NCBI GenBank assembly: GCA_950295325.1
Contig: OX485809.1
Location: 11,034,001-11,098,000, forward strand
Direction of reading: 5' to 3'
DNA length: 64,000 nucleotides
DNA from: Polytrichum commune
Taxonomy: Eukaryota > Streptophyta > Polytrichopsida > Polytrichales > Polytrichaceae
A program made the translations under genes and the position numbers. How positions within the stretch are numbered: the stretch's first letter is position 1; the number at the start of each line of letters is the position of its first letter. Below are positions 2,469 through 23,483 of the stretch, piece after piece. The notes below the pieces were generated by a model that was not told the origin of the DNA, made no database searches, and saw only the letters and a list, made by a program, of their open reading frames with translations.

Positions 2469-2575
2469 CAGGGTTGTCTATTGTGTCGTGACGGAGGGTA
2501 ATCCCGGCATAATGTCGTGCCGTCACGACACGTATCCGTCACGACATTATGCCGGATGCTGTCTTTATCCTGACG
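2469..2575. repeat. hAT left terminal and subterminal repeats
   Basis: After the 12-bp terminal repeat come several copies of TGTCGTGAC or its complement GTCACGACA, and a large inverted pair centred on CCGGCATAATGTCGTG and CACGACATTATGCCGG. Clustered short subterminal motifs of this kind are the usual binding sites of hAT transposases; that role is inferred here. Confidence 0.75.
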
Positions 2576-2699
2576 GACTTGAATTTTACCGATTTTTTTG
2601 TGTAATTACATTAACCCAATTCAGACACGTAGGATTTACAATGTCCACGTGTGATGACATGTCAGCAAAGTAAAGATAAAGTGGGGAAAAATTTACTAG

Positions 2700-3670: not shown

Positions 3671-3865
3671 CCCTCCTTAGTCGTTTTTTACTACTTTGAT
3701 TTTAACAAAATGGTAAACAAAATGGCAAAATGATTTACCTGGCGCTAGGCATATCCACGACCACGTCGGCATTTTCTGCCACATAGGACGCCACCTTGGC
3801 AAGAAGGTAAGTATTTTACCCACCCTAGTCCGTTCCCCCTATGTTGACCCTACGTGGACCCTATT

Positions 3866-3923
3866 GTGTCGTGACGGAGGGGTCCGTCACGACACCGTCA
3901 TGACGTCGCGATAGACAACCCTG
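3866..3923. repeat. hAT right terminal and subterminal repeats
   Basis: Contains TGTCGTGAC, GTCACGACA and GTCATGACG followed by TAGACAACCCTG. It matches the right end of the large element at 23400-23475. Confidence 0.8.
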
Positions 3924-3959
3924 CATGGGTTAAGAGGCAACTTATTTAAAAAGGCAACG

Positions 3960-6233: not shown

Positions 6234-6468
6234 GTTTTTGGAGATGACAAAAGTAATTGGAATTGAAAAGGAATTCAAGTTGAGTCAAAAACACTATTAC
6301 CGATTCGGACAAAAATGAGTTTAAGTAAATTTTTATTGCATTTTTTTTCATGGAGCACTCAAGTTCATCATGAATGTGAGGAACATCAAAAAAAGAATTC
6401 CAAGTCAAAAATCATGGAACGCGTGTTTGGAGTTCGTTGTGAACATACTTTTAGTAATATATTTTCAT

Positions 6469-6700
6469 CAGGGTTGTCTATTGTGTCGTGAGGGAGGCTA
6501 ATCCCGACATAATGTCGTGGCGTCACGACACGAATCTGTCATGACATTATGCCGGATGCCGTCTTTATCCTGACGAACTTGAATTTTACCGTGTTTTTTT
6601 GTGTAATTACATTACCCCAATCAGGACACTTAGGATTTACGATGTCCACGTATGGTGCCATGTCAGCAAAGTAGAGGTAAACTGGGAAAAAAATTACTAG
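6469..6700. repeat. Left terminal and subterminal region of the giant hAT
   Basis: Matches 2469-2700 of the short element base for base over long runs, including the TGTCGTG/CACGACA motifs and the ATGTCCACGT...CATGTCAGCAAAGTA stretch. Confidence 0.85.
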
Positions 6701-6705
6701 CGCCC

Positions 6706-6885
6706 GTCCCCCCCCCCCCCCGTTCCCCCCGCTCCCTACGTTCTCCTCCCCCATCCGGCACCCCATCCGGCCCTCATCCGGCCTCCATCCGCCCCCCCCC
6801 TAATCCGAACCCGCCCCCCCCCCCCCCCCCCATCCGACCCCATCCGGCCTTCCATCCGGCACCCCGTCACATCCGACCGACCGTA
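6706..6885 (+). repeat. C-rich promoter array, kinase unit
   Basis: Repeats of CCATCCGGCCC, CATCCGACCC and C-runs end about 35 bp before a TATA box. The same arrangement is found ahead of the transposase and, on the other strand, ahead of the RING gene. Confidence 0.75.
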
Positions 6886-6920
6886 CCTCGTCATGATTGG
6901 CCTATGGGCTCCCCTTGCCC

Positions 6921-6928
6921 TATATAAA
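6921..6928 (+). promoter_or_regulatory. TATA box of the kinase-like unit
   Basis: TATATAAA in a GC-rich setting (CCC before, GCCCGG after), about 230 bp before the chosen ATG and just after the C-rich array. The transcript start is expected near 6950-6960. Confidence 0.65.
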
Positions 6929-7153
6929 GCCCGGGGGGCTTAGTTTCAAATACTTTTCCTCTCCTCCCACCACTTAGGGACCCGAGACCTTGTTGCGTCC
7001 CAAGGGATAGCGGCACCGCGCGGGTCTCAAGGGTTTTGGGAGGGCAAGGCAAATTGTGGGGTAACCCTCGCAATTTTTTTTTTTATAGATTCACGCACTC
7101 GTTTCTACACTCACTCACTCACTCACTCACTCATTCACGTGGTTTTTTGGGGG

Positions 7154-8793
7154 ATGGAGGGGGAGGACATTGCTCCTTACCAAGACGAGGATTCAAGGGT
7201 GCACCGTGCTTGGGTACAAAGCAATGCATCACCAAATACTGGCGAGGGAAGCGAGCCCGGAAGTGGAAGTCCTGCAGCACGTATAGCACGTAGAGATCTT
7301 GTTGAATTTGATCAGGAGTTTTTGGTTGTTGGTCATTCTGGAGGCAACCAATCACGGGGAAGCCGTGGAACACGTGGCAGTCGGGGAAATAGTGGATATA
7401 GAGGGAGATTAGGAAGGGGACCAAGCTCAGGCAGTTCCACTGGTATACATGCACCGACTCGTGTGGAGCACGTGACACCTCGATCTCCGACCCGAGGGAC
7501 ATCAAGCCCAACTAGCCCTGCACGTGATGTACATCGGTCTTCGGAAGGTGATGAACGACGGGGATTGAAACGCGCAGCAGATTCGGAAGGGATGTATGAG
7601 GGGTCCACGGCATCAGGTTTGCAATCAAAGAGAAGGAAAAATAGAGGCAAACATGATAAACCTCGCGATGAGGTTCGAAACCATTGTAGGACATTGGTTT
7701 TGGAATGGTTTAGAAACCACAACATGGTATTTTTGGAAAAACAATACCTCAATAATGGTACAAAGGGTTTAGAGTTGGTGAAGAACGAGTTCATGCTTCT
7801 TCTCACGGAAGGCACAGCTGGATCGGAGTTTGAAGAAGCTAGGGGCACGAACGATTGGGATGTGTGGATTGAACAACAAGCCACAGAAGCAGTCTACAAT
7901 CCAACAATGGCATATGATGCTTTGCATCCTGGCGAGGGAAGTAGTAGTGGCATGAAGTCTGAGCTGTACGAGAAACTAGGGAATTGGAGAAGAGGCGTAA
8001 TAATAGCAAAAGGAACATCCGCCCGCAACCTCCCCGTGTTTATTGACAGACAAATGGCAGACAACATTGCCACTCAGGGCCAACATGGTGTCATATGGTT
8101 GCCTAGAAATGCGGAGATCAAAGCCTTGGATAAGGAAATCTTCCAAGGGACCTTCGGAGTGGTGCGGAGGGTCACAATTCATGGAGCATCATCCATCCCT
8201 AGCTGGATAGAGTGGGCTGGGAAGACCATGAAGGCCAAAAATAGTTTGGAGAATCGGAAGGAGCGTTCAGTTGAAGCATTCGCATGCCCAGTAGATCATT
8301 CTGGGGTAATCAAACTACAATACTTGCACCCGAAAACATACGAATCCTATTCGATGTGGTGGAATGGAGGCTCTTTGAAGCATATGAGGGCCTATGACTA
8401 CCAAGTTCCGGATGTCCACGAGAGCACAATCCTTCAAACGCCAGGGCCAGACTTTGAAGCACGGAAACGGTTGGTTGTATATCGAAGGCTTCGAGCTTAT
8501 TTGGCATGGGCTCTAATGTGCATTGTGGATGTAGTGCACAAGCATGACGTGTTGCACAATGACCTTAATCCCAACAATGTCATGTTGCATTTCCCATAAG
8601 ACCGGGATAACACGGTTTTCATTGGTGTGTGTGATTGGGGCATGGCATCCTGGGGAGATGAAGATGCACCCTCTAACTATGAAAAAGATTCAGTGGATGA
8701 GATGAACAAGCACAAAGCAAAATACAACTGTGCTGGTCCTGAATTATTCCATGTACGAGGACAGCGTAGAACATCCATGTGGGTTAAAAGTTT
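7154..8793 (+). pseudogene. Protein-kinase-like cargo gene, broken
   Basis: The first ATG of the frame is at 7154; the frame is open further upstream only through a GTG. Residues about 60-110 are a low-complexity Arg/Gly/Ser stretch. The C-terminal half shows protein-kinase motifs: a glycine-rich loop QGTFGVV (about residue 331), a Lys-rich AGKTMKAK segment, the catalytic loop HNDLNPNNV (Asp470) and DWG (about 494, in place of DFG). An in-frame TAA at 8597 separates the catalytic loop from DWG; the same frame then continues (DRDNTVFIGVCDWGMA) and stops resembling a kinase near 8793, where minus-strand retrotransposon gag begins. So the gene has one nonsense change and has lost its C-terminal lobe. 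HxDLNPxN with DWG suggests a divergent kinase, possibly active in intact copies. Being cargo of a hAT element, it may have been captured from the host or may be a family accessory gene. Confidence 0.8.
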
Positions 8794-8795
8794 GT

Positions 8796-10530
8796 CTCGC
8801 GTTACCATGGTCGTAATACAAATTTGGTGGTCTAAGTTCATTAGGTGGTCCACCTTGAGGTCTAGCTCCTCTCATATTATCCCTCGCTTGTTGTTGTGGA
8901 TTGGCTACCGGATATGACATGCTAATGACTTTATCCGGTTGACGACATTCATCCGAAGGGTGATTCCCCCCACAATTACTACAACCATAACCTTGTCCCT
9001 CGGACCAATATTGACCTTAGGCGTGCCATTTCCCACAAATCGAGTGAAACTCTTTCTTCTCATTGTCTTAACCACCTTGACCTCTAGGAGGGTAACCTCT
9101 ATTGTTCCCTTGACCATAGTGAGGTGGTGCTTGACCTCGTTGATTTTGTAGAGGTGGACCATTGTGTCGCCATTGGTCACGGTTTTGTCCAACTCTACAA
9201 TATTGACGAATATGGCCCGGTTGGCCACATTGAACACACCATAAACCCGACGAATGTCTACCCGACTCAATAGGTGGTGGGGTCCCGGTTGTTGGCTCTT
9301 GATCATCAATGACATTTGGTCGGTAAGGCTTTGCATTTGTTTGATCATGGCCTCTTGGAATCCTAATTGACTAGCACCTAACCGTCGCTCTACTTCCTCA
9401 AGGTGAGGATCAACTCTAGGGGCCGGTAGTGCTAGTAGAGACACCGGTTCTCTAACCGCCAAAGGACGTGGCCCCCCATCAGCTATAGCATAAGGAGTTT
9501 GACTCTCATACTTGACCGGATCGACCGTGGCCACTCTAGGTTGAATGGGGATGAATTGAGGTATCAATTCATCTTCCCTCCTCCACAAACGCTCATGATC
9601 TTTGTCCAAACTTTCTATCTCCCTAGCCGCTCGTTTGGCATCCGCTAATGTGTGAGGACTTCTCTCAAGGACGCTCCTAATAGTTCCCGACTTAAAAAAT
9701 CCTTGGATAAAAAATTGTTTTAGTGTGTCGTCGTTGAGCATGGTGCCCACGAATCGCGTACACACTAAATCAAATCTTCTAATATATGCAGAGATTTCTT
9801 CCTCCCTACCTTGCTTCAATGAAGCTAACGCTCTCAAGGCCGTGCTTTGACCAACTTCCGGACGAAACTCGTTTAAGAATTCTCTTTGCAATTGATCCCA
9901 ACCTCTAAAATGACCTTCGGCATGGTCCCTATACCAATCATAGGCCTCGCCCTCTAAAGTGGTGGGAAACCAAACTAACCAATAACCCGGGTTAATCACG
10001 AGGGAGCTAGCCAACCTCTCCATATACCTCTCCATATGCCTTGAAGGATTCTCATCCTTAGTTCCATAAAACTTAGGAAGGTGGGACGGTATGTCCAACA
10101 CTTGTAAGTTTTGTGGAACTACAATGGGTAAGCCTCTCAGCCTAACCAATGGATCAATCGGCGGTATAGGAGGTATGGGTGGTGGATCCATTTCTCGACC
10201 CCCATCCATCGTGATCGATGAACTATCTAATAATCCACTAACAACTCCTATCGGAAATTTCTCCCTAGGTGTATAATTTTCCGAAGAAGTTTCACCACTC
10301 AACTTGGAGGGAGTAGTCTCCTCTTCAAGTTGAGCTCCTAATTCTAATGTATCTAAAATTGATCTAGTCCTAGGTTCAACATTTAAGCAACTCTCTATCC
10401 TAACATCATCTTGTTCTACTCTATTATTACTTCTAGAGGATCGCCTCTTTCGCGTAGATTTTTCCAATCCTACTATCAAGCTTGGTTTTTGAGAACAAGT
10501 CTTACCTTGCATTCCATAAGAATCGATCAA
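8796..10530 (-). pseudogene. Ty3/gypsy-type gag, frameshifted
   Basis: Starts at the minus-strand ATG 10530. Residues about 140-290 form a retrotransposon gag domain (typical phrases LPKFYGTKDENP, GEAYDWYRDH, LQREFLNEF, ALRALASLKQG). The main frame runs to 8905, but the first zinc knuckle CVQCGQPGHIRQYC is in another frame, so a frameshift lies near 9290-9310. A stop interrupts the region before a second knuckle, CSNCGGNHPSDEC, whose frame continues to about 8796. The capsid/nucleocapsid protein would package element RNA; this copy cannot make it whole. No pol follows. Confidence 0.82.
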
Positions 10531-11405
10531 CCCTCACTTGACCAACATACAATTCTCACATTTCCCCTCTTAGTATTATCATTTTCTTTGGTATAAATTA
10601 AAACTTATGGAGGTGAGGAAAGAGAACTTGCAAACCCACTTAAGTGAAAAATCCCCAACAAGGGATAGGCATGTTCATGCCAATTCTCAGTCAAGTCGGA
10701 GCATCACCTCCGCACTTTTCTTCGAATAGGCACTTACCACAATACCGATAGTGAGGGGGTAACCGTTGTCATACACTACATTGAAAATCAAGGCATCACC
10801 CTCAAGTTTCCAACATAATGTGATGGCTAAGGAATTACCCTCTACAACGGGTAACGACAATAACGAATACTAAAATCGTTCCTTAATTATTTAGAAGTTT
10901 CAATTGGAAGAAAATGACATACCTCAAACTATCGCTTCCCCCTGCAAGTTAGCACTCCCCTCGGTCGTGGTTCAACGTGATATCACAATCACTAAATCTA
11001 ACTAATAACTCTAACCTATAGATTCCAAGCCCAAGACTTGGAGACTCACCCCGGGGTGAATGTCGAAGTCGAATTCCTAAATTAATTATCCCTCTAAAGA
11101 ATTAATGAGCTACCGATCTTAGGTTCCTTTTGATGTTCTTAGCAAAATCCCAAGAAGGTGGCGAACGTACCTTCGCCGCGCTCCTTCCTTAAAAATGAAA
11201 TTGCATAATTGACAATGCAATTCATTCCAAGGAATTAATTGAAATACAACTACTCTAATAAAGTCAAATATAAAACCCAAGAGAGAAAACTTACCGCACC
11301 TTGAGTGCTCCTTCCTCTCTCTCATGTTCGTGCCTCCATGTCTTCCTAGTTGCCTCCAAGTCTTCTATCTACTACCCGCTTCACTCCCGGCGGACGTACC
11401 ATTTA
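10531..11405 (-). other. Retrotransposon leader region
   Basis: Sequence between the 5' LTR and the gag start of the minus-strand element. It holds the candidate primer-binding site at its upstream end and no convincing coding frame. Confidence 0.6.
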
Positions 11406-11517
11406 TGTGAGGACAAAACCACCCCCCTTAGGCGTCCTAGTCCGGGTGATGGTGTTGAAAATCACATGTATTGTTCGTATCGAAAGAATGATCTCTTTGC
11501 ATCCCGAGGCATACATG

Positions 11518-11772
11518 TCATTTTGAATCACTTTGTTTATTAGTAGTGACCTCTTGGCTTGTGACCGAATTGGCCTTCTCAAGAGTCCAACCGGCGGCCT
11601 TGGCAACACAAGCTCTTAAGGATATCCCCCTTTGGCCTTTGATTATTCTCTTCGTTACTTGACCATTGCTAGAGTCTTCCGCTTTCTCCATCTTTTTATA
11701 AGTGATCGATTTTCTACCAAAAAGGATGTAAGTGTTGAAAAACACTCCCTTAATGGTTAGACACGCCCCCAC
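11518..11772 (-). CDS. Short ORF inside the LTR
   Basis: An 84-codon minus-strand frame near the downstream end of the LTR. Its C-terminal half contains RGISLRACVAKAAGWTLEKAN, also found in the 59-codon frame at the same place in the solo LTR at 27262-27441. Conservation between two diverged copies suggests a translated leader peptide or a remnant of a former gag start. No function is known to me. Confidence 0.4.
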   Translation of the reverse strand: MGACLTIKGVFFNTYILFGRKSITYKKMEKAEDSSNGQVTKRIIKGQRGISLRACVAKAAGWTLEKANSVTSQEVTTNKQSDSK

Positions 11773-11997
11773 ACAATTGCCTTGCGGCCACCCTTAATTC
11801 TAACTATACTAAAAGTCCTAACTACTTTCTCATGGCTAATTAAGGTTTTAAAGAATCTAATGTGATAGATGCTAGAATATGTTTGCGCCTTATTGATTAG
11901 TTCCAACTTCAAGTAGCCTCTTAGCTTAATTAAATGTAAATGGTTTACCCAACCAGGTAACCTTTTAATTTAACTAGCTTACAGCCTCGGCGCTCCA

Positions 11998-12131
11998 GGG
12001 CCTTAGCCCAGACCTTGGTGCTGCAAGGGCTTAGCCCAAACTTCGGTGCTGCAAGGTTTAGCCCGGACTTCGGTGATCCAGGGCTTAGCCCAAACTTCGG
12101 AGCTGCCATGCTTAACCCAGACTTCGGTGCT
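11998..12131. repeat. 28-bp tandem array in the LTR, left part
   Basis: About five units of GGCTTAGCCCAGACTTCGGT-GCTGCAAG type. The array is cut by the solo LTR at 12132 and resumes at 13961-14010. A related 40-bp array (AAGGCTTAGCCAGCCCC...) is in the LTR at 26675-26880. Confidence 0.8.
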
Positions 12132-13960
12132 TGTGAGCCCAAAAGGGTGCCCACATTTAGTCTTAGACCCTTGAAACGTTAGTTGATGCACTTTGAAGTA
12201 GCATGTTACTTCACAAAAATATAAAAAGAGTGAAATGTTAGTCTTAGAAGTACCATGTTGTAAGAGGCTAGGATGTGAGTTGTTATTGTGTTTTTACCTT
12301 CGGAAGGATTTGAGTAATGAGGATAGGTAAGGAGAACTTGGATTGAGTAGTTAGTGAGTAGGCTAGTACAAATGGATGGAGACAACCAAAGTGACTCAAG
12401 AGGCAAGTGCATTCGAATTGGGATGAATGGAGGATCACATGGAGCGCACAAGTGGACCACCTCATCATGGCCACTTAATGGGGAAGGCCCAAGGAAGAAT
12501 GTAAGGTGGAGGATAAGCAAATTCTCAAAGCACCAATCAAATCACGAGTTAAGCATCGTGGTTTGAATTAAGTGGTGAGCGACGATTTGGGAAAGTAAGG
12601 GGAGAAAGTTATGGCGGCGGAAAGCGAAGGAGGCTAAGTTTGGGTTGAAGCATCCCAAGTTTGGTAAAGTGTGGTAGGTAGAAAGCCAAGGCTAGTTAAA
12701 TGTTCGAATTAGGATCCTTGTTGATCATTTGAGGGAGGAAGGCTTAGAAGATAGGATTGGCGCCTACTAAGTAGGAGGAAATCTCAAGGGCTTATCGTGA
12801 GCCTTGAGGGTGCTCACCCCCTCAAGCTTACTATATAATCCCTCATTCTTCCCTCATTCATCCTCTCTTTCCTTTGTGCTCCAAGGCACCCCACAAGTTA
12901 TAAGTGTGGGTGTGGAAAGCCATATTGGAGCACATGTGTGTGCTTAGTTTTTAGTTTGAGAGCCAAGGCTTGTTAGCCTTGAAGAGGGCTTGACCTCTTG
13001 GTAGAATTAGTGTTGACGTGAAGGATTTTAAAGTTAATTCATGATTCCAATTTGTGGTACTTTAAGTTCATGTTTTGAATACACGTGGTTGCAAGTTCCA
13101 TGTTTAAGGGTTGAGCACTTGATGTTGTGATGAGTGCAAAAATATACTTGTGTGGATTAGTTAGTCTTAGTGAAGTTAGGAAATTCTCTCTCCCCCTCTC
13201 CTCTCTAGGATTTTAGGATTTTAGGATTAGAGAAGAATTGTGTGATTAGAAAGGGGTTGTTAGTAGAATTAGGGAAATTAGGTAGGAAGATTAGTTAAGG
13301 GCTTGAATAATTAGTGAGGTAGTTGGGGATTACAACTACAAAGTTGTGGGTTCATGAAGGAGCTGGGTTTATGAAGGAGCTGGGTTTGTTTAGTTAGAAA
13401 GTAAAGAGCTGGGTTTATGAAGGACCTGGGTTTGTTTAGTTAGAAGCTAAGGAGCTGGGTTCATGAAGGACCTGGGTTTATGAAGGAGCTGGGTTTGTTT
13501 AGTTAGAAGCTAAGAAGCTGGGTTTATGAAGGAGCTGGGTTTATGAAGGAGCTAGGTTTATGTAATTAGAAAGTAAAGAGATGGGTTCATGAAGGAGCTT
13601 AGTAGATAGCCTACCTAATTAGCTCATAGACAAGTAGTTAGTTACATTATGCTAGTTAGTGTTATGTGTGGCTTTCACAAGTAAATGTATTTGAGATTGA
13701 CTATAGAGAATAGTGTTTTTTTTAACACTTGCATCCTCTCTTTTAAAATAAACCACGTGCACAACTTAATGGAGAATGTGGAGCACTCTCGCGATGGCAA
13801 GACAAAGGAAGCAAAGACCAAAGTTAAATCCAAGACCACTTGAAGGGTGAACCTTGCACTATGGACTCATCCAAGTCCAAATCCAATACCGCGGAGGAAT
13901 GTGAGCCCAAACCCACTACTCGGACTACGGACGCTTAAGGGTGGGGGGTTTGGCCTCACA
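12132..13960 (+). mobile_element. Nested solo LTR, 1829 bp
   Basis: Starts TGTGAGCCCAAAAGGG and ends TTTGGCCTCACA, with an exact 5-bp duplication GTGCT (12127-12131 and 13961-13965). It is the same LTR family as the one it landed in, but in the opposite orientation. It carries a TATA-like CTATATAATCC near 12831 and a tandem array of GAGCTGGGTTTATGAAG units. No internal region remains, so the element was reduced by LTR-LTR recombination. Confidence 0.92.
13330..13600. repeat. Tandem repeat in the solo LTR (GAGCTGGGTTTATGAAG)
   Basis: About ten short units of AAGGAGCTGGGTTTATG, alternating with a TTTGTTTAGTTAGAAG spacer. Non-coding, and specific to this LTR subfamily within the window. Confidence 0.8.
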
Positions 13961-14010
13961 GTGCTGCAAGGCTTAGCCCAGACTTCGGTGATCCAGGGCT
14001 TAGCCCAGCC
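13961..14010. repeat. 28-bp tandem array, right part
   Basis: Continuation of the array at 11998-12131 after the solo-LTR insertion. Confidence 0.75.
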
Positions 14011-14804
14011 GAACTAAAATCTACCACAATCCACCTAATCACCTAGTTAGTCAAAGGCTCATATGCGAGCCTTTCAACTACACACTAAATGTAATCCTTT
14101 CAAGATGCTTAATCGGACAATGGATAACTCTTTTAGTCTTTGACTAATAAAGTAACTAATTAACTAACAACACTAACTAATCTACACACGTGGTTCCAAG
14201 CTCTAAGAGCTCACCTCCTTGAGAGGACTAGAGAGAGAGCTTAACTCCTTCACTTCACTAAAAACTAATCAACCCACACACGTGGCTCAAGCTCTAAGAG
14301 CTCACCTCCTTGAGAGGACTAGATGGAGAGAGAGAAAAATGAGAGAGAAAACACCTTAAATAGCAAAGAGAGGAAGAGGGAGAGAGGGAGAGAGGTGAGG
14401 ATAGGGTGAGAGGATTAGCACCCCCAATCACAATCCTTTAACCTTCTCCTCCAAAGTAGGGATTAATCCCCATCCACCAAGCTTCTTTCTTCCTAAACTA
14501 CCAAGGTGGATCCAAAAGTGGGCATTTAACCCGTGGAGCTCACCTTGCTTCACCTTACCCCCTACTCACATGATCAAGGCATACTCTTATTGACTTCAAC
14601 CTTGAAATAATCACACCACACATTCTAAAGCCTAAACTTAAATCCAAATCACACTTCACTCTTTTTATGTTTTGTGAATAATCATAACACATCAAAGTCA
14701 AACTAAAATTGGTTTCGAAGAATTAATCACCACATGTGAGCACCATTTTGGGCTCACAACATGATGAACAAACCATGCAAACTCTAATATTCTACTTCAT
14801 TCCG

Positions 14805-15365
14805 TTATGCCAACCTCGTAGATGCTCCTGGCTTCCGGCGAGGGTCCATTTTTGGAAGAGGATTCGGCCGAAGTAAATCAACATAGCTAATCATTCGGTC
14901 TTTTATCCGTTCCTTCAACGGTAGCCGATGAGGCGATAATCCTCTTATCTTCTTACGAAAAGATAAAGTCTTTGAAGATTCTCCCACCACCTTGACTTCT
15001 TCAATGTCGAATGAATTGTCCTCTACATCCACATCCCTAGGCTTCCTCAAAATATCCCCACCCAAATCAACCACATCATTTGGATCTCCATCCACGCATT
15101 TTGTTAGGTCCTTCTCTACCGCATCGATCTCAAATTTGTTCGCATATCGTTGTTGGTCATCCTCCGCCCTCAACTTCCATGCTTGTGTAGATTGTGAGAA
15201 GGAGATCATGACATAATCATCACGAAATCGTTCAATCGCACTTCTCTCATCTCTCTCACGCTTGGGTGTTGGATTGAATGGAATATGTGGATCTCCTAAA
15301 TTATCTATCTCCTCATCCCATCCTAGACCCTCACATATGTCTGTCTCATTTCCCTTCCTATCCAT
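14805..15365 (-). CDS. Hypothetical protein, orphan ORF in the giant hAT
   Basis: An uninterrupted 186-codon frame from an ATG at 15365 to a stop 46 bp before the retrotransposon LTR. The protein is hydrophilic and rich in Asp, Glu, Arg and Lys, with no signal peptide, membrane segment or recognised domain; the tail PRRKPGASTRLA is basic. It lies convergent to the kinase-like gene. It may be the C-terminal or only exon of another accessory gene of the element. I do not recognise the family. Confidence 0.45.
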   Translation of the reverse strand: MDRKGNETDICEGLGWDEEIDNLGDPHIPFNPTPKRERDERSAIERFRDDYVMISFSQSTQAWKLRAEDDQQRYANKFEIDAVEKDLTKCVDGDPNDVVDLGGDILRKPRDVDVEDNSFDIEEVKVVGESSKTLSFRKKIRGLSPHRLPLKERIKDRMISYVDLLRPNPLPKMDPRRKPGASTRLA

Positions 15366-15639
15366 GATTCTCTACCCTCGGTCCCTCGTTATATGTATGA
15401 GTCTAAATGCTGTACTTATGTATTGAGCTCAAATGACTTCATCGTATATACAATAATTGAGATATCCAAGATGTAGAGGATCCAATTCTATTTGGTAAGA
15501 TAAAAACAACTTAATCGGAATAAAAAGAAAGTTGGTTAGGTCAAAAAGATCGATGCACTTTTTGAAAAAGTCTCCCAACATCCGCATTGGAAACCTCTTT
15601 GATACCTCTTCGAAGCTTCTATATTTGATTAGTTATCCA

Positions 15640-16015
15640 TTCATTCAATAAATCATACATTTGTGCTTCAACCTTAGTGGTTCATATGGTTTCATAACCC
15701 ATCTCACGCATCCAAATTCCACTTTCATTCCATAAATCATACATTTGTGCTTCAACCTTAGTGGTTCATATGATTTCACAACCCATCTCACGCATCCAAC
15801 TTCCACTTTCATTCAATAAATCACACATTTGTGCTTCAACCTTAGTGGTTCATATGATTTCACAACCCATCTCACGCATCCAACTTCCACTTTCATTCAA
15901 TAAATCACACATTTGTGCTTTATGTATAGTGGTTCATATGGTTTCACAACCCACACGCATCCAAATTCCACTTTCATTCAATAAATCACACATTTGTGCT
16001 TCATATGGTTTCATA
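15640..16015. repeat. Tandem repeat, about 83-bp unit, five copies
   Basis: Units begin CATTCAATAAATCACACATTTGTGC at about 15643, 15728, 15812, 15894 and 15976 and contain GTGGTTCATATGATTTCACAACCCATC. The later copies are slightly shortened. Non-coding. Confidence 0.92.
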
Positions 16016-16048
16016 TGTTTGTTCAAATGATGAAGATTGTAGCCTAAA

Positions 16049-16380
16049 TTGCCCCCCCCCCCGAACCCTATTCCGAACACCCCCCCAACCTTAATCCGAC
16101 CCCCCCCCCTCCGAACCCCCCCTAATCCGAACACCCCCTCCTAATCCGACCCCCCCCCCTAATCCGAACCCCCCCTTAATCCGACCCTCCATCCGGCCCC
16201 CATCCAACCCCATCCGGCCCTCCATCCGGCCCCTCCATCCGGCCCCATCCGACCCTCCATCCGAACCCCATCCGGCCCCCATCCGACCCTCCATCCGGCC
16301 CTCCATCCGCTACCCGTTCCCCGCGTTCCCGCCGTCCGCTCCCCGCGTTCCCCGATCTCCCGTACCGTTCCCGCCCCCGT
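16049..16380 (+). repeat. C-rich promoter array, transposase unit
   Basis: C-runs with CTAATCCGACCCCC units, then CCATCCGGCCC units, then CCGTTCCCGCGTTCCC. The array stops directly before the TATA box at 16387. Open frames across it are low-complexity artefacts. Confidence 0.8.
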
Positions 16381-16386
16381 GAGTAC

Positions 16387-16393
16387 TATAAAT
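16387..16393 (+). promoter_or_regulatory. TATA box of the hAT transposase
   Basis: TATAAAT immediately after the C-rich array and 235 bp before the chosen transposase ATG. Transcription is expected to start near 16415-16425. Confidence 0.65.
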
Positions 16394-16627
16394 TGAGAGT
16401 TCAAGGTGCCATTTTTGCCTCCACTGTCATAGTGTGTCTCAAGACTTTTGATTCTCTTCTAAGGAGTGAGGATTGAATGCGTGAGACCCGATTGCAGAGG
16501 ATACTTTGTCCACTCTAGTCACTGTGAATTGGGGATCGATGCCCTTGTGGCACTCTTCAACATGTGCTAGTATGCGATCAAAGGAACTTGCTCTACCTTG
16601 TTTGTATTTGCAAGTTTTGTTGAAGTC

Positions 16628-19600
16628 ATGCCACGCCGAAATGATGCATGGGATTATTGGTTCGAGGATAAGGGGATGGTTCCCGGTAAATCACAGAGGC
16701 AGGTTAAATGTAGGTTTTGCTCGTTCGTCATATCTTACCGAGGAAATAGAATGTTGGCCCACCTTGGTTATAGACCTCCTACAGGGGGTGCTTCTGATGT
16801 TTCCTCATGTAGGATGGTACCCCCGCATATTAGGGTCTTGTTTGAACATTGCGGAGGCATTGTGCCCTTACATGTAGGCATTATAAATGAGGACTCTCCG
16901 GTGCGAGATATTGTACCTCTGGAGCCTATTATAGCGGACTCCGTAATTAGTGAAACAAAGCCTTTGCTTATGTCCCAACCCACTCAACAATCTGATGATG
17001 TGATATATGGCACACCTCCTCGTGAACTATGTCAACTCAACATAACGGAGGGGTTCAATGTGTCAACAAAACAACTCCTTGATAGAGCATGGGCAACGGC
17101 TTTTTATGAAGCTAACATTCTTTTCAACATTGTGAGACATCCTGCATTTGTTAATATTGTGCGTGAAACTGCCCGTCATCGAATGCCAGCCTACACACCA
17201 CCATCGTACAATGCCATCTGTACGAAGTTGTTAACTGATCAAAAGGTTGAACTAGATAGGCAAGTGAAGGAGAAGTTGGGGAATTCTGTTGAAAAATACG
17301 GTGTTACAATATGTTGTGATGGATGGGACAACGTGCAAAACCGACCTCTCCTAAACGTTCTCCAATGCGGCACAAAGGGAGACGTTTTCTTGGGTACCAT
17401 TGATACCACGGGAAATCACAAGGATCATGTATATGTTGTTGCTCAAATTCAACCATTTGTGGAAAAGGTTGGTCGACATAATGTAGTCCAGATTTGCACC
17501 GACAATGCCCCAGTTATGGCCTCCGCTGCTCGCGACTTGATTCAAGCAAATCCCGATCTATATTTTCAAGGATGTGCTACGCATTGCCTAGATCTCCTCT
17601 TAGAAGATTGGGGGAAGGAGGAATGGGTGAAAAAGTTGGTAAAAAAGGCGCGCCATATTTGTGTTTTTATCAAAAACCATCATGCTTCTCAAGCTATATT
17701 CCGGAGGTTGTCACCAAATCTCTCACTCCGCCTACCTGTACAGACCCGTTTTGCAACGAACTTCATCATGATAGATCGTCTTCTTCAAGTACGCAATGCT
17801 TTGGAAAGAATGGTGGTTGATGAGGATTGGCCTACTCTACTGCGTGATTTGAGGAGGAAATCTGCCACCGCTTACATGAAGGGCGTTGCAGTGCGACGCT
17901 TTATACGTTCCGATGGATTCTGGAACACGTGCAAAAATTTCCTGTATATGGTGATCCCGGTTGTTAAAGTCCTTCGTGTATTTGATGGCAAGGCGCCTGT
18001 AATGGGATTGGCTTGGAGGGTCATGCATGATTTACAAACCCATATTCGTGGATTCAGTGAACCTCCGTTTCGCTTAAGCCTTAAGCTTGCTGCAAATGCT
18101 ATGCTAACGTTTCAAAATAGATGGAGGTTGATGTTGAATGATCTTCATTGGGCTGGAGCGATGTTAAATCCGCTTCTACGTGGGTGGGCCCCACTTAATA
18201 AGGATGAGAATTCGAGGACAATCCTAAATGGAGTTCTTCGCAGGCTTACTCCAGATGGGGACAGTTATATCCAAATCCTCTACCAGTACCAAGATTTCCT
18301 TGAAAATCGAGGGCATTTTGCTGATTCTACAGACCCGAACGTGCATGCTGCACCTCTCCATGAATGGTGGGATGCAATGGGAGGTGGAGCTAAGGCCCTC
18401 CAAACAATACCAAGACGTATCCTTGCACAAGTATGTTCTGCATCCGCATGTGAGCGCAATTGGAGCATGTATTCATATGTTCACAACAAGAGTCGCAATC
18501 GCTTGAAGCATAGTCGTGCCGAGGACCTCGTCTACATATATACCAATAGTAGGCTCATTCACCATCGGAGGGGCCCAAGACATGCGCAATGGTACGAATT
18601 GAATGAGGTCCATTCCGACGATGACCTTGACGAAGAAGATGACGTGGATCCAAATGATAGGGCCGGAAATGATGACGACAACAATGTTGATGACATTGAC
18701 TTTGATTTAGATGATCTCGATTTTGATAATCGTGATTCTGATGATGATGATGATGGTAATGATAGTGATGAAAACCTTGGGGTGTTTGATTTTGATGAAG
18801 CGGATGTCCCCCATCATAACGACGTAATGCACGACGATCATGAGGGACCTATTGGAGGACCACATTTTGATACCGTCCATACTAGACAAGGTTTTCGCTC
18901 TGACCATAATGTTGCTATGGGAGCACCGGAGAATGTAGGAATTGAAGTAGGTTCCTTGCAACCTCATAGCGATTCTCTTTCTTTTGGTGGAGGTGACAAT
19001 GTACTACCAGCAAACGAGCCAACGCATGTTCAACATGATCCACTTCCAACCATAGTACATTCTGAATCCATGGACGCCCCCCTCATATCCAACCATCGTA
19101 TAGAAGTTTTAACTTCCAATGTTGCTGAAAGGCCCACAACTCGATTTCGTGCTCTTCAAAGAAGTGCATCCACCTCTACGGTGCAAGTGCATGCACAACG
19201 TCAACATCGTCCTCTCACTCGAAGTATTGCCAATACTTCTAGATTGGGTGTTTCACGTGCAGATGTTGTGGGTGCTACTTTGGTTGCACTACACAATGTT
19301 TCAAGAAATGTTGCTATAGAGGCGCCACGCCGTCAATCTCTTCGTCAACATGTTGTTCAGAACATACCATCCGCAAATACATCCGCATCAGTTTTGCTTT
19401 CACAGAGTCAATCCAATGGAAGAGGTGGTCTTGAAGTTGGAGGTGGAAGTACTGTGGGGGATGCAATTATAGATGGAAGTAGAGATGAAGTGCACTCAAG
19501 TCGTGGTAGGAGTGGAGGGCGCCAGAGAACTACGAGAGGTGTCAAACGTATTAGGAAGAGGTATCAAGGAAGATCGCTTCCGTTTACTGCTGAAGACTAC

Positions 19601-19816
19601 AATGAAGATGAGGGTAGACCACATCTAGATGAAAATGGCATACAAGATGCAGAGGGCTCCCGGCCCACCAAGAAGATAATTATCTCACAACGCGACCGAA
19701 AGTTGCATTTTCGGAGCAGGACCCCCCAAACAGATGATGATTTCAGTACAGACGAGTCTGAAAAGGATCCAAGATGTGTCGAAGCAAATGATCCCACAGT
19801 ATGGATTCGAACATAA
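16628..19816 (+). CDS. hAT-superfamily transposase (BED finger, DUF659, hAT C-terminal)
   Basis: A single uninterrupted frame of 1062 codons from the ATG at 16628 (MPRRNDAWDYWF); an in-frame ATG at 16598 is possible but less typical. It would bind the element ends and carry out cut-and-paste transposition in the nucleus. In order: a BED-type zinc finger (C28, C31, H45, C61 followed by the MVPP motif), a DUF659/RNase H-like core with the first catalytic Asp in CCDGW (Asp231) and the second in CTDNAP (Asp292), the CATHCLDLL motif (about 316), and the C-terminal hAT block ASACERNWS (Glu609) with HNKSRNRL. After about residue 660 comes a very acidic Asp-rich stretch, then about 300 residues of low-complexity tail with an Arg-rich segment (GRSGGRQRTTRG). 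This is longer than most plant hAT transposases (600-800 aa). No stop or frameshift was seen, so it may be functional. Confidence 0.93.
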   Translation: MPRRNDAWDYWFEDKGMVPGKSQRQVKCRFCSFVISYRGNRMLAHLGYRPPTGGASDVSSCRMVPPHIRVLFEHCGGIVPLHVGIINEDSPVRDIVPLEPIIADSVISETKPLLMSQPTQQSDDVIYGTPPRELCQLNITEGFNVSTKQLLDRAWATAFYEANILFNIVRHPAFVNIVRETARHRMPAYTPPSYNAICTKLLTDQKVELDRQVKEKLGNSVEKYGVTICCDGWDNVQNRPLLNVLQCGTKGDVFLGTIDTTGNHKDHVYVVAQIQPFVEKVGRHNVVQICTDNAPVMASAARDLIQANPDLYFQGCATHCLDLLLEDWGKEEWVKKLVKKARHICVFIKNHHASQAIFRRLSPNLSLRLPVQTRFATNFIMIDRLLQVRNALERMVVDEDWPTLLRDLRRKSATAYMKGVAVRRFIRSDGFWNTCKNFLYMVIPVVKVLRVFDGKAPVMGLAWRVMHDLQTHIRGFSEPPFRLSLKLAANAMLTFQNRWRLMLNDLHWAGAMLNPLLRGWAPLNKDENSRTILNGVLRRLTPDGDSYIQILYQYQDFLENRGHFADSTDPNVHAAPLHEWWDAMGGGAKALQTIPRRILAQVCSASACERNWSMYSYVHNKSRNRLKHSRAEDLVYIYTNSRLIHHRRGPRHAQWYELNEVHSDDDLDEEDDVDPNDRAGNDDDNNVDDIDFDLDDLDFDNRDSDDDDDGNDSDENLGVFDFDEADVPHHNDVMHDDHEGPIGGPHFDTVHTRQGFRSDHNVAMGAPENVGIEVGSLQPHSDSLSFGGGDNVLPANEPTHVQHDPLPTIVHSESMDAPLISNHRIEVLTSNVAERPTTRFRALQRSASTSTVQVHAQRQHRPLTRSIANTSRLGVSRADVVGATLVALHNVSRNVAIEAPRRQSLRQHVVQNIPSANTSASVLLSQSQSNGRGGLEVGGGSTVGDAIIDGSRDEVHSSRGRSGGRQRTTRGVKRIRKRYQGRSLPFTAEDYNEDEGRPHLDENGIQDAEGSRPTKKIIISQRDRKLHFRSRTPQTDDDFSTDESEKDPRCVEANDPTVWIRT

Positions 19817-20386
19817 TGGTTTTGCACAAATATTGTCTTTAGGTGATCACATTTATTGCCGTAATTTATTACTTACGTCAAAATTGATACAACCTTAGGG
19901 CCTTCAGTAAGACATTCAGACCACAAAGCAAACGCATCCTTCGCAGTTGTATCGTTTATTATAGTAATAAAGTTATTTATTGCATATTTTTAAAAATCTC
20001 TCAAATACCATATGGTTGTCAACTTGTCATTACAATTAACTCCAACACAATGGTATGTCATTATTAGTACAATATGGTGTATTATTCTTACGGTGAATGG
20101 AGTTTTATTACTATTTATTGAGTTTCTTAAAGCAAATGCTTTTATAATACTCTTGGTTATACAATCATATGAATTACTAATATTCAAGTAAGTCTTTAAA
20201 AGTCTCGAAAAACATCAAAATATGTGGCATCCATATGATATCTTTTACACGCTATAATCACTTAGAAATAAAAAATTGCCAATAAATCCTCTTCATATTA
20301 CATATTGTTAGAACATGAAATATGTACATTGTGTCCAAAATTTTCCTACCTTCCTATACAATTTTCTCAACATCATACAAAAATTC
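19817..20386. other. AT-rich spacer between convergent element genes
   Basis: Lies between the ends of the transposase (+) and the RING gene (-). It is AT-rich and probably holds both 3' untranslated regions; no other feature was seen. Confidence 0.5.
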
Positions 20387-22722
20387 CTAATCCGAATCTG
20401 AATCTGAATCAAGGTCTATTGCAATTGATCTAGCTGGATGAAGATGAAATCCTCGTTGTACTCGTGATGATTCCCCGGCTTCCATGCTACGCGTTGCTCC
20501 ACGGGTGAGATATGAGCGACTTCCAGGAGACAATGGAGCGGCATTACGTGGTCTAGGCCCACCATTGAGCCATCTCAAAACCGCATCATCCGTAACTTTG
20601 TGTAAGAGTGCATCAATTGCATTCAACTGCAGCATGTTCTAGTGGTACCCCTCCTCTAACTCCAATTCAAATCTTGCCTCCCGTTCCATATGCATGTCAT
20701 CTGCATCTTGTTTCAAGTCATGCTCCGATACTAATTCGAGACCCGTTGCATTGAACCAAGGAGGATGGTTGCCGCTCTTTAATTGTTTGCTTGTTGTATC
20801 CCAATGCCAATCAAGAGTTTGGTAAAAAAATCTTTTCAAGCTATGCTCGGGGGGCTTGTTGGAATACAACTCGTCTGCAATGTACAAAATTTGACGTGCA
20901 CTCCGTGTCCATGATCCATTCATGTTCTCGTTCCATAGCTCAACTTTGGCACAATTGTATAATCAACTCCACTCAACACACTGCCCATCAAACTCTTGAA
21001 GTTCGAAAAGAAAGTCCTATGGCTTTAACACCCAGTCGTTAGGCATGTAATCCCGAAGGCCAAATTGGAGGTACAAACGAGGGTGGAAGGGTGATCTACA
21101 ATGAGGACATTGTCGGTTCTTAATCATATTCTCTATTAGACATTGTGGGAGGAATTGGGCCCCACATGATCCAACTTGAAAGCATCCCTCTGGGCCAAAC
21201 GGACATTGGCAAATCGCGCACACGGATCCGTCAAAAACCATCGCATGTGAATTTGGCAATAACTTCTCACCAGTCATGTGTAATGGTTATTCATGCACTT
21301 GTTCCACATCCCAATGGTGATCCTCATCGGACACTTAATGCCAATCAATGCTTCCGCTTGGCAATGTCAAGTCCGCATTCTCATCCCACCAACTAGGGTA
21401 CATCTGCTCATCTTCTGGCCATGACGTGAGCATCATGTTCCGCATTCTATGATTGCGGTTTCATTCTTTCTGGATGCTCTCAAATTCAGCTTCAAATTGA
21501 TGAGCCTTGGCCATAGCAAACAATGTGCATGTCCTCATATTCTTGCGCTCCACAATCGCATCCAACAAAAATTTCTTCAACCTTGCATTCTGCTCCTCCA
21601 GTCCGCCAATCTTGTCTAGGTGATTAACAACCACTTCATTGACCACTTGAAGTTGTTGTTGCATGTCTACCACCTCATTTTGCAAAGCCTCCATCTTTTC
21701 TCGCATTACTTCATTCCTCATGTATACTTCCAAAACTTGTGACTTTGCAATCTTGGCCTCCTATAAAGCTGCGTCCCTCTCTGCTTCCAAAGACTGAATT
21801 GTTGGTGCAATTGGTGTACTACTTGAACTGCCTGCCTCCCCCATCGTAAGTGTTGCAACTTGATTTTCCAAATCGAGAATCCTTGATTTGTACTTACGAA
21901 TTTCCTCGGCATGTTGCTTACGCAATTCCTCCATTCTGTTCTTCATCGTGTCCGCTCCAAGTTCACCAAGGTTTACCTCGGTAACCACCTGGTTGATCAA
22001 ATTATTGACCTCAACTTCTGCTATGTTCTCTTGGTCATTCATGTCATCCATGTCGTCATCCATGTTTGTGTCCGCCTCCCCCATTACCGTATCCATGTCA
22101 TTGTCCGTTCGACCAACAGGCGTGTCCTTTTTGGTGTCCGACCCTCTGGAATTGGCGTCCCGGGCTCATCCACTAGTCTGGGATTCCTCCTTAACCATTC
22201 CGGAACGGTAGTATATGGAATATCTGGAACTGTACACTTAGTGAATGCAATTCCTAAACCCCCAAATGGCCTCTCGCTTAGAGCAGCCAGACTTGACCAA
22301 TCCACTGTAACTTGCAACACGTGCTCCGCATACATCATATATGCCACTGACTTCGGAATTGCGCTCTTTGGCCATCTTGTCAAATTGGAGATATTCCTAC
22401 GTATTGTTAAAAATCTCCATTTTACATCCACATCTTCAAGCTGGTAATAATTCGCACTGAGGGCCCTACAATGTCGCTCGTGACAATGTCTTGGCCACAA
22501 CCGATCAACGTGAGGGAAGCCCACGAACTGCAATGCAATCTCCGCAGACCACGGCTGTTGTACCCTCTCCCAACCTATCCGGGCTTTTTGGGTGTGGTCG
22601 TCGTAAATATCCCACTCCAACCCACAATGCTTGCGTGTTGGTTTTTTGGGTTTAGGTGATCCTCCACTTGCCATGTCTCTAGATCCTCCACTTGTCATGT
22701 CGTTGGATCCTCCACTTGCCAT
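20387..22722 (-). pseudogene. Coiled-coil/degenerate-RING accessory gene, decayed
   Basis: Read from the minus-strand ATG 22722. The first 190 residues begin with GGS-(N/R)-DMASGG repeats and a basic segment, then an unrecognised domain (ISNLTRWPKSAIPKSVAY). One frameshift at about 22137-22165 joins it to a long frame with an acidic stretch, two coiled-coil helices (about 22000-21470), a RING-like motif CAIC...SCGAQFLPQC...QCPHC (21220-21110), a Trp-rich segment and a natural-looking DSDSDSD end at 20387. In that frame there are seven premature stops: 21761 TAG, 21461 TGA, 21335 TAA, 21287 TAA, 21017 TAG, 20963 TGA and 20639 TAG. The apparent separate small ORFs are pieces of this one gene. 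The RING lacks its His ligands (CGA...L instead of CGH...H). It is divergent from its own TATA (23052-23059) and convergent with the transposase. The role is unknown; a RING might suggest ubiquitin ligase activity in intact copies. Confidence 0.75.
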
Positions 22723-23028
22723 GTATCCACCCCAATTGTAGTTTCTAAGCCTAATCTATAACTTTAATTATTTAAATACTAATTGCACTTCATAATAGTG
22801 CTACAAAAATATCCAAGCATACACTTCAAAATAGTGTTGCTGTGGAATGAATTCGAATTTTTGTTAAAAAAATAAAGTAAAAAAAAAAGCCACCAAAAAC
22901 ACACCCACAAAACACGTGAGTAAATCCCAAATGTGAAAAAAAGGACCCTAAACTCCCCCGAGTGCCCCGCGTGCCCCACGCTCTCTTTAAGAGGAGGGCC
23001 GTCCGGGCACCCACAAGGAATGGAGTGA

Positions 23029-23060
23029 GGTATATAAGTGGTCCCCTCCACTTATATACC
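23029..23060 (-). promoter_or_regulatory. Palindromic TATA element of the RING unit
   Basis: GGTATATAAGTGG and its exact reverse complement CCACTTATATACC face each other across a 6-bp spacer, placing a TATATAAG box on each strand. The minus-strand box would serve the gene starting at 22722. Confidence 0.6.
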
Positions 23061-23213
23061 CCATCCGGCCCCCCATCCGCTCCCCGTTCCCAAGAACGGT
23101 TCCCCATCCGAACCCCCTCCCCCCCCCCCCCCCCCCCTATGTGACCCGCCCCCCTCCCCCCCCCTATCCGACCCGTCCCCGTCCGCTCCGTTCCCCTCCC
23201 CCCCACACCCTCA
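23061..23213 (-). repeat. C-rich array behind the RING-unit promoter
   Basis: Contains CCATCCGGCCCC, CCATCCGCTCC, long C-runs and CCGTCCGCTCCG. It lies directly upstream, in minus-strand sense, of the TATA palindrome, so all three element genes share the arrangement array-TATA-gene. The G-rich form is therefore on the coding strand here, opposite to the other two units. Confidence 0.7.
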
Positions 23214-23475
23214 TTTGTCATATTTTACTACTTTGATTTTAACAGAATGATAAACACAAAGGCAAAATGATTTACCTGGCAAGGGAAATATGCACATCCA
23301 CGTCGGATTTTTCTGCCACATTGGATGCCACCTTGGCAAGAAGGTAAGTATTTTACCCACCCTACTAGCTTCCCCCTAGTATGACCCTACGTGGACCCTA
23401 TTATGTCGTGACGGAGGGGTCCGCCCCGACACGACACGTCATGACGGTGGCAGGATGTCGCGATAGACAACCCTG
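23214..23475. repeat. Right terminal region of the giant hAT
   Basis: About 260 bp matching the right end of the short element (ACTACTTTGATTTTAACA..., CACCTTGGCAAGAAGGTAAG, ACCCTACGTGGACCCTATT), then TGTCGTGACGGAGGGGTCCG and the terminal TAGACAACCCTG. Confidence 0.85.
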
Positions 23476-23483
23476 ATTTTCAT

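What the first reader, a model, noticed from the sequence alone, without database searches (positions are those of the whole stretch)
6469..23475. A 17-kb hAT transposon carrying kinase and RING/coiled-coil genes beside an intact transposase
Seen directly: perfect 12-bp terminal repeats, exact ATTTTCAT duplication, an unbroken DUF659/hAT transposase, a kinase-like gene with HxDLNPxN and DWG, and a coiled-coil/RING gene. Known: plant hAT elements normally carry only a transposase in 2.5-5 kb. Inferred: the extra genes are accessory genes of a large hAT lineage, since three transcription units share the same promoter arrangement.
Basis: partly seen in the sequence, partly recalled or inferred. 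Interest (0 to 1): 0.92.

Follow-up and report, generated by a model that had tools for sequence, protein, structure and literature searches.

The report
Three-gene giant hAT jumping element
A large cut-and-paste jumping gene family in this genome carries, besides its transposase, two further genes that look like a protein kinase and a RING (ubiquitin-ligase-like) protein, and it has recently spread as a unit of roughly 13 to 18 kb, whereas known relatives usually carry only a transposase.

Summary
In detail: a hAT element (6469-23475) with 12-bp terminal repeats, an exact 8-bp target duplication and an open DUF659/hAT transposase. 41 of 43 transposases have a convergent RING gene within 12 kb; 74 of 88 kinases have a RING gene within 20 kb (chance about 1). 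On contig C1, exact ends pair into 24 short gene-less elements (0.7-2.7 kb), 17 long ones (12.6-18.4 kb; 13 with all three genes) and 6 longer pairings. Perfect 8-bp duplications bound 13 of 14 long pairs tested. Two copies read in full have all three genes open. Kinase and RING show dN/dS about 0.5 between subfamilies. Corrections: the window copy is a degraded minority form. Its kinase has a stop codon and is cut by a 6-kb gag-bearing segment, its RING gene is frameshifted, and the commonest order is transposase-RING-kinase. Best reading: an autonomous multi-gene hAT whose kinase- and RING-like proteins serve the element; their biochemical role is inferred. Eight open-access paper searches listed no report of such a hAT.

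The parts
6461..6468 (.). left target-site duplication ATTTTCAT
6469..6480 (+). left terminal inverted repeat CAGGGTTGTCTA
   Evidence: left-end 20-mer occurs 452 times in the genome, reversed control 0
6706..6870 (+). C-rich minisatellite upstream of the kinase-like gene, then TATA-like TATATAAAG at 6921
7154..8777 (+). kinase-like gene, broken: in-frame TAA at 8597-8599, homology ends at 8777; open in other copies (635 aa)
8778..14758 (.). segment foreign to the element family, in place of the kinase 3' end and its downstream spacer
   Evidence: no alignment to the other copies read; 1.2 kb of it matches 38 other places, 1 of them within 20 kb of an element gene hit
8905..10533 (-). Retrotrans_gag ORF inside that segment
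   Evidence: PF03732 E 9.1e-12
14759..16003 (.). spacer block shared by all copies read here, with a 188-aa ORF (14805-15371, -) and 84-bp tandem repeats; ORF without detectable constraint
   Evidence: dN/dS 1.01 in one pair
16054..16360 (+). C-rich minisatellite upstream of the transposase gene, TATA-like CTATAAATT near 16386
16628..19816 (+). hAT transposase gene, DUF659 plus hAT C-terminal dimerisation domain, uninterrupted
20387..22722 (-). coiled-coil/RING gene, pseudogene in this copy (RING Cys cluster about 21080-21225); open over 777 codons in the C1 and C7 copies
23089..23210 (-). C-rich minisatellite upstream of the RING gene, TATA-like site near 23031-23060
23464..23475 (-). right terminal inverted repeat
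   Evidence: right-end 19-mer occurs 309 times in the genome, reversed control 0
23476..23483 (.). right target-site duplication ATTTTCAT
2469..3923 (+). short non-autonomous element of the same family, TSD CATGGGTT (2461-2468, 3924-3931), none of the three genes

Best explanation
The thing is one (degraded) copy of a recently amplified family of large autonomous hAT transposons. Shown: the unit bounded by 12-bp TIRs and 8-bp duplications is mostly about 12.6-18.4 kb and carries three intronless genes: a DUF659-type hAT transposase, a convergent coiled-coil/RING gene, and a kinase-like gene. Inferred from the domain hits: the transposase cuts and pastes the element and its short gene-less derivatives through the shared ends. 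Inferred: the kinase-like and RING proteins, each with one basic nuclear-localisation-like cluster, are accessory proteins kept because they help the element. The likeliest way is by modifying or degrading the transposase or a host repressor, as an anti-silencing or activity-control module. Inferred: the kinase gene changed place and then orientation (left of the transposase; then right of RING and pointing outward; then inverted).
For: Co-occurrence: 41 of 43 transposases with a convergent RING gene within 12 kb, 34 of 43 with a kinase within 30 kb, 74 of 88 kinases with a RING gene within 20 kb against a mean of 0.94 when placed at random. In the DUF659 census (138 of 138 candidates scored, 132 matches), 87 of the first 101 hits (90 bits or more) have the convergent RING gene. 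On C1, 47 of 88 left ends found a facing right end within 60 kb: 24 pairs of 0.74-2.7 kb without any of the three genes; 17 of 12.6-18.4 kb, 13 with all three; 6 longer. Perfect 8-bp TSDs at 13 of 14 long and 2 of 2 short C1 pairs tested and at two full copies on C2 and C7. The C1 (32569099) and C7 copies have all three genes open over their whole length. dN/dS of type a against the other subfamilies: kinase 0.50-0.52, RING 0.50-0.56, wrong-frame readings of the same pairs 0.79-1.24. Kinase core (codons 441-540) 0.23-0.33; RING region 0.29-0.59, both on few changes. HNDLNPNN and CDWG are kept in 17 of 17 kinases compared. Two copies 88 kb apart differ at 9 of 5333 aligned sites, with unrelated flanks on the one side read.
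Against: Kinase and RING matches are below Pfam's curated cut-offs (27.4 against 31.7 bits; 24.7 against 27.3), so enzymatic activity is unproven. Many copies are broken: of copies read in full, 2 of 9 RING genes lack stops; 10 of 17 kinases lack stops and frame-shifting indels; 31 of 43 transposase hits lack stops. Closest pairs give dN/dS 0.85-1.17, and the two type c kinase clades give 0.60-0.62 against each other. For the transposase, 0.61-0.64 in frame is hardly below the lower wrong-frame value (0.70-0.75), so its own constraint is weakly shown. No confidence intervals were computed. 14 of 101 DUF659 hits lack a detected RING gene and 28 of 101 a detected kinase; the kinase search scored only 89 of 224 candidates, so part may be missed hits. 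41 of 88 exact left ends on C1 found no partner. One tested long C1 pair (2520064-2532921) and one C3 copy have no matching TSD. Three C1 copies (21.87, 21.92, 21.95 Mb) look like one local duplication, so copies are not all independent. Other plant genomes could not be searched. No expression data.
Confidence: 0.8

Rival explanations
1. Passenger cargo: an ancestral hAT captured two host genes, which now ride along in a burst of very young copies without helping the element.
For: Type a and b kinases are 96.7-99.7% alike, so linkage could simply be inherited from one recent ancestor; closest pairs give dN/dS near 1; the window copy and the related C4 copy have broken RING genes; 7 of 9 RING genes read in full carry stops.
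Against: Subfamilies 10-16% apart in kinase and RING DNA still share all three genes and show dN/dS about 0.5, with 0.23-0.33 in the kinase core; wrong-frame readings of those pairs gave 0.79-1.24. The 188-aa ORF in the same element gives 1.01, as a passenger should. The kinase gene survived changes of place and orientation.
Confidence: 0.17
2. The kinase and RING genes belong to separate elements nested in or beside a normal hAT, and the 17-kb span is a composite.
For: The window copy does contain a foreign segment with a gag ORF; kinase position varies between copies; 14 of 88 kinases have no RING hit within 20 kb.
Against: Same three genes inside the same ends at many places with perfect TSDs; RING lies 2.3-2.4 kb from the transposase in most copies; the gag piece, by contrast, is at 38 other scored places, 1 of them within 20 kb of an element gene hit.
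Confidence: 0.02
3. Ordinary host kinase and RING genes caught by chance between paired ends.
For: Kinase and RING domains are common in plants (general knowledge).
Against: Many copies on all seven large contigs, in single ORFs, inside matching TSDs.
Confidence: 0.01

Closest known systems
hAT superfamily DNA transposons (DUF659 branch; Ac, Tam3, Tag1, Hatvine families as plant examples)
   Same: Transposase domains, 8-bp TSD, short TIRs; grapevine high-copy hATs have 8-23 bp TIRs and 8-bp TSDs (PMC2528002, passages seen).
   Different: Units of about 12.6-18.4 kb instead of a few kb, and two further genes; a single transposase gene is the usual content (recalled).
VANDAL21 with its VANC21 anti-silencing protein (class II; a Mutator-like element, recalled)
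   Same: A class II plant element that carries an accessory gene; VANC21 promotes hypomethylation of VANDAL21 copies (PMC8616336, passages seen).
   Different: Different superfamily (recalled); the passages do not describe VANC21 as a kinase or RING protein. Function here is untested.
PIF elements with a second ORF (ORF1/PIFp2)
   Same: Two-gene cut-and-paste element in plants (PMC2528002, passage seen).
   Different: Different superfamily, TSD mostly TAA/TTA (same passage); different second protein (recalled).
ToxhAT/ToxTA (fungal 14-kb cargo transposon)
   Same: Large class II element with extra genes, once called a hAT.
   Different: A 2025 paper reports a TA duplication and 74-bp TIRs and argues it is a non-autonomous Tc1/Mariner-type element (PMC12506042, passages seen); so it is not a hAT precedent.
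MuDR with mudrB (maize)
   Same: Autonomous DNA element with a second gene convergent with the transposase gene (recalled).
   Different: Different superfamily and unrelated second protein (recalled).

Membership tests
hAT superfamily | 8-bp target-site duplication | tested here: met
   Window copy and short window copy exact; 15 of 16 C1 pairs tested perfect; C2 and C7 copies perfect, one C3 copy not
hAT superfamily | short TIRs (5-27 bp as quoted in PMC12506042) | tested here: met
   12-13 bp identical ends; no longer local alignment of the subterminal regions
hAT superfamily | hAT transposase with C-terminal dimerisation domain | tested here: met
   Dimer_Tnp_hAT E 6.5e-9 and DUF659 E 3.1e-34, both over Pfam cut-offs
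hAT superfamily | DDE catalytic residues with CxxH and ERNWS-type context (motifs recalled) | tested here: met
   CCDGWD, CTDNAPV, GCATHC, TRFATNF and ACERNWS present in order in the window transposase; role of each residue recalled, not tested
Protein kinase (PF00069) | profile match over the curated cut-off | tested here: inconclusive
   E 2.7e-6 but 27.4 bits against a cut-off of 31.7 in the open C1 copy
Protein kinase (PF00069) | Lys, HxD..N and DxG motifs (recalled) | tested here: met
   HNDLNPNN and CDWG in 17 of 17 copies, Lys of the GKT/EKT motif in 17 of 17; phosphotransfer not testable
RING finger (zf-RING_2) | profile match over the curated cut-off | tested here: inconclusive
   E 2.9e-5, 24.7 bits against a cut-off of 27.3
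RING finger (zf-RING_2) | Cys/His zinc-ligand series (recalled) | tested here: met
   CAIC...CGAQFHPQC...CPHC in the open C1 copy; some other copies, the window's among them, have lost a ligand or carry a stop here
VANDAL/VANC-like anti-silencing element | accessory protein lowers methylation of element copies | not testable with these tools
   no methylation or expression data held
ToxhAT/ToxTA | TA duplication and 74-bp TIR | tested here: not met
   8-bp TSD and 12-bp TIR here; ToxTA features from PMC12506042

The most novel reading that the evidence does not exclude
A hAT lineage that carries its own nuclear signalling and ubiquitin-type module (kinase plus RING protein) to disarm host silencing or license its transposase; the element is evolving as a multi-gene genetic system whose gene order is reshuffled by its C-rich promoter arrays.
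Probability: 0.35. Interest if true: 0.88.

Novelty: new variant of a known kind. Interest (0 to 1): 0.72.

Why it matters
hAT elements are usually described as one-gene transposons (recalled). Here is a young, high-copy hAT family in which, on the one contig where ends could be paired, each 12.6-18.4 kb copy with a detected transposase also carries the RING gene and all but one the kinase gene. That would show that the superfamily can acquire and keep regulatory enzymes. It would also give a tractable system for asking whether transposons use phosphorylation and ubiquitin-type proteins against host silencing. Near-identical copies with open genes and many gene-less derivatives in one genome make that question directly testable.

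Tried and rejected
Separate nested elements and host-gene capture by chance were rejected on co-occurrence and TSDs. The 188-aa ORF was considered a fourth gene; dN/dS 1.01 and two frame-shifting indels between two copies argue against it. Positive selection on the transposase N-terminus (13 nonsynonymous, 0 synonymous shared differences in codons 1-210) was not significant (p 0.095). The foreign segment in the window copy shares no 11-base word between its first and last 900 bases, direct or inverted, so it is not shown to be an intact LTR element. A viral-contig search with the kinase alignment found no relative, but it used only two N-terminal peptide patterns, and an exact end-pattern scan of prokaryote contigs found none; neither tests plants. 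The species was not identified: seven large contigs of 42-78 Mb fit n = 7, but two paper searches did not name it. A check of the right end of the second C2 copy missed the end. ToxhAT was considered as a hAT precedent and dropped after reading passages on its reclassification. Rows dropped before counts: of 133 RING matches 110 were used, the 23 left out being further pieces beside a kept match; of 91 kinase matches 88 were used, leaving out the duplicate contig C56 and two further pieces. All 132 DUF659 matches were used; the strong group was first labelled 108 bits or more in the script, but a recount shows its 101st row has 90 bits. C56 is identical to the window in 1500 of 1500 flank bases and was treated as the same locus.
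Full report
Observation. The ends and the duplication are exact: ATTTTCAT-CAGGGTTGTCTA at 6461-6480 and TAGACAACCCTG-ATTTTCAT at 23464-23483. The best local alignment of the two ends covers 13 bases. The transposase ORF (ATG 16628, stop ending 19816) is open and matches DUF659 (E 3.1e-34) and Dimer_Tnp_hAT (E 6.5e-9) above Pfam cut-offs. Motifs recalled as typical of hAT catalysis occur in order: CCDGWD, CTDNAPV, GCATHC, TRFATNF, ACERNWS. A second, gene-less element with the same ends lies at 2469-3923 with its own TSD CATGGGTT.

State of the window copy. The kinase ORF ends in TAA soon after HNDLNPNN; the DWG motif lies past that stop, and homology to other kinases ends at 8777. The RING gene carries 7 stops and 10 frame-shifting indels against the open C1 copy. 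Between 8778 and 14758 the window does not align to the copies read across this part (C1 types a, b and c; the closest relative, on C4, 96% identical in the kinase). The stretch includes a gag ORF. A 1.2-kb piece of it matches 38 other places (40 of 527 candidates scored), of which 1 lies within 20 kb of an element gene hit. So part of the 17 kb is not the element's own, and this copy's accessory genes are broken while its transposase is open.

The family in the source genome. The window lies at G000:C7:11034001-11098000 of a 407.8-Mb, 64-contig assembly. Exact left-end 20-mers: 452; exact right-end 19-mers: 309; reversed controls 0. Transposase search: 43 scored of 287 candidates, 42 over the whole query and one over 1-1043 of 1063, 87-93% identical apart from the window copy itself, 31 of 43 without stops. 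RING N-terminal search: 133 matches, 135 of 135 candidates scored. Kinase search: 91 matches, 89 of 224 candidates scored. Placing these on the map, 41 of 43 transposases have a convergent RING gene within 12 kb (mostly 2.3-2.4 kb), and 34 of 43 have a kinase within 30 kb. 74 of 88 kinases have a RING gene within 20 kb, against a mean of 0.94 (maximum 5) in 1000 random placements. A census with Pfam DUF659 (138 of 138 candidates scored, 132 matches) gave 101 hits of 90 bits or more; 87 have the convergent RING gene within 15 kb, 73 a kinase within 30 kb, 67 both. Of the 31 weaker hits, 7 have a RING and 6 a kinase hit nearby.

Units that move. The printed lists of exact ends run through all of contig C1 (88 left, 55 right). 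Pairing each left end with the next facing right end within 60 kb gave 47 pairs; 41 left ends had no partner. 24 pairs are 0.74-2.7 kb long and hold none of the three genes. 17 are 12.6-18.4 kb long: 13 hold all three genes, 2 RING and kinase, 1 transposase and RING, and 1 none (possibly mispaired). 6 are longer, and several of those overlap nearer pairs. No pair fell between 2.8 and 12.6 kb, and none of the 17 held a transposase alone. TSDs were read at 14 of the 17 long pairs and 2 of the 24 short ones: 13 of 14 and 2 of 2 are perfect 8-mers. Three of the C1 copies (near 21.87, 21.92 and 21.95 Mb) have the same numbers and kinds of kinase stops and neighbouring short elements at similar spacing, so they are probably one local duplication. 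Full copies on C2 (TSD ATCCGCAG) and C7 (TSD AAACGGGG, 16.3 kb) were also checked; a C3 copy has no matching TSD. The C1 copy at 32569099 (TSD GTAACACC) and the C7 copy have transposase, RING and kinase open. Of copies read in full, 2 of 9 RING genes lack stops, and 10 of 17 kinases lack stops and frame-shifting indels.

Gene orders. Among 74 kinases with a RING neighbour, 43 lie beyond RING on the same strand as RING (type a), 24 lie there inverted (type b), and 7 lie left of the transposase as in the window (type c). In a kinase tree of 17 copies chosen from these types, two separate clades at the base are type c apart from one copy without a RING neighbour; the four type b copies sit next, and the six type a copies form one young group. 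I infer c, then b, then a. The tree was midpoint-rooted and holds only 17 of 88 kinases.

The proteins. In the C1 copy the kinase-like protein is 635 aa and the RING protein 777 aa, both single ORFs. Pfam: Pkinase E 2.7e-6 (27.4 bits, cut-off 31.7); zf-RING_2 E 2.9e-5 (24.7, cut-off 27.3). A profile of four kinase copies found PDB kinases (TTK, SR protein kinase) only weakly, best E 0.0029. Each of the three proteins has one cluster of at least 6 basic residues in 10: around SRKRKNRGKR in the kinase, EPKKPRNRKR in RING, TRGVKRTRKR in the transposase. That these are nuclear localisation signals is inference.

Selection. Nei-Gojobori comparison of the type a copy on C1 with the other subfamilies gave dN/dS 0.50-0.52 for the kinase, 0.50-0.56 for RING and 0.61-0.64 for the transposase. 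Reading the same pairs in the two wrong frames gave 0.87-1.24, 0.79-1.11 and 0.70-1.11, so the transposase contrast is weak. Other pairs: the two type c kinase clades 0.60-0.62; type a against type b 0.47-0.63 (kinase, RING, transposase); a type a pair for RING 0.60; the closest pairs 0.85-1.17; two older RING copies 0.75. By region, kinase codons 441-540 gave 0.23-0.33 and RING codons 491-580 gave 0.29, 0.31 and 0.59, on 6-16 nonsynonymous changes each; transposase codons 1-210 gave 21 nonsynonymous and 0-1 synonymous differences, an irregularity left unexplained. The 188-aa ORF gave 1.01. No confidence intervals were computed.

Age. Twenty-six of the 28 main-type transposases compared differ from their consensus at 9-26 of about 3180 sites, L024 at 58 and L030 at 105. 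Two copies 88 kb apart differ at 9 of 5333 aligned sites but have unrelated flanks on the side read, so they are taken as separate recent insertions.

Interpretation. It is a hAT by every feature tested. What the kinase and RING proteins do is not shown. The closest functional analogy found is VANDAL21, which encodes the silencing suppressor VANC21 (PMC8616336, passages). ToxhAT, a 14-kb element once taken for a large hAT, is argued to be Tc1/Mariner-like (PMC12506042, passages). Eight searches of open-access full texts (listings seen, some capped at 8-12 rows of many) listed no report of a hAT with kinase and RING genes; two more were on the species. Subscription papers, preprints and repeat databases were not searched.

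Noticed in passing
window 2469-3923: A 1455-bp gene-less element with the same TIRs and its own 8-bp TSD (CATGGGTT), its middle made largely of C-rich minisatellite.
   Followed up: yes
window 8778-14758: Foreign segment with a gag ORF and several tandem arrays in place of the end of the kinase gene; no shared 11-base words between its two ends, so its own borders and type are unclear.
   Followed up: partly
window 14759-16003; L039:3139-4303; L097:1563-2825; L098:2363-3548; L100:2840-3913: A spacer block with a 188-aa ORF and 84-bp tandem repeats is present in all five copies read there, near the transposase or between RING and kinase, yet its ORF shows no constraint in the one pair tested; perhaps a non-coding function.
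   Followed up: partly
transposase codons 1-210 (window 16628-17257): Differences shared by the two window-type copies against the main subfamily are 13 nonsynonymous to 0 synonymous here, while later parts have many synonymous ones; not significant in an MK-like test (p 0.095).
   Followed up: partly
G000 C1 near 21.87, 21.92 and 21.95 Mb: Three large copies with matching kinase stop counts and neighbouring short elements at similar spacing suggest a local segmental duplication.
   Followed up: no
G000:C56 (18,563 bases): An unplaced contig identical to the window locus including 1500 of 1500 flank bases: a duplicate or allelic contig, not a separate insertion.
   Followed up: yes
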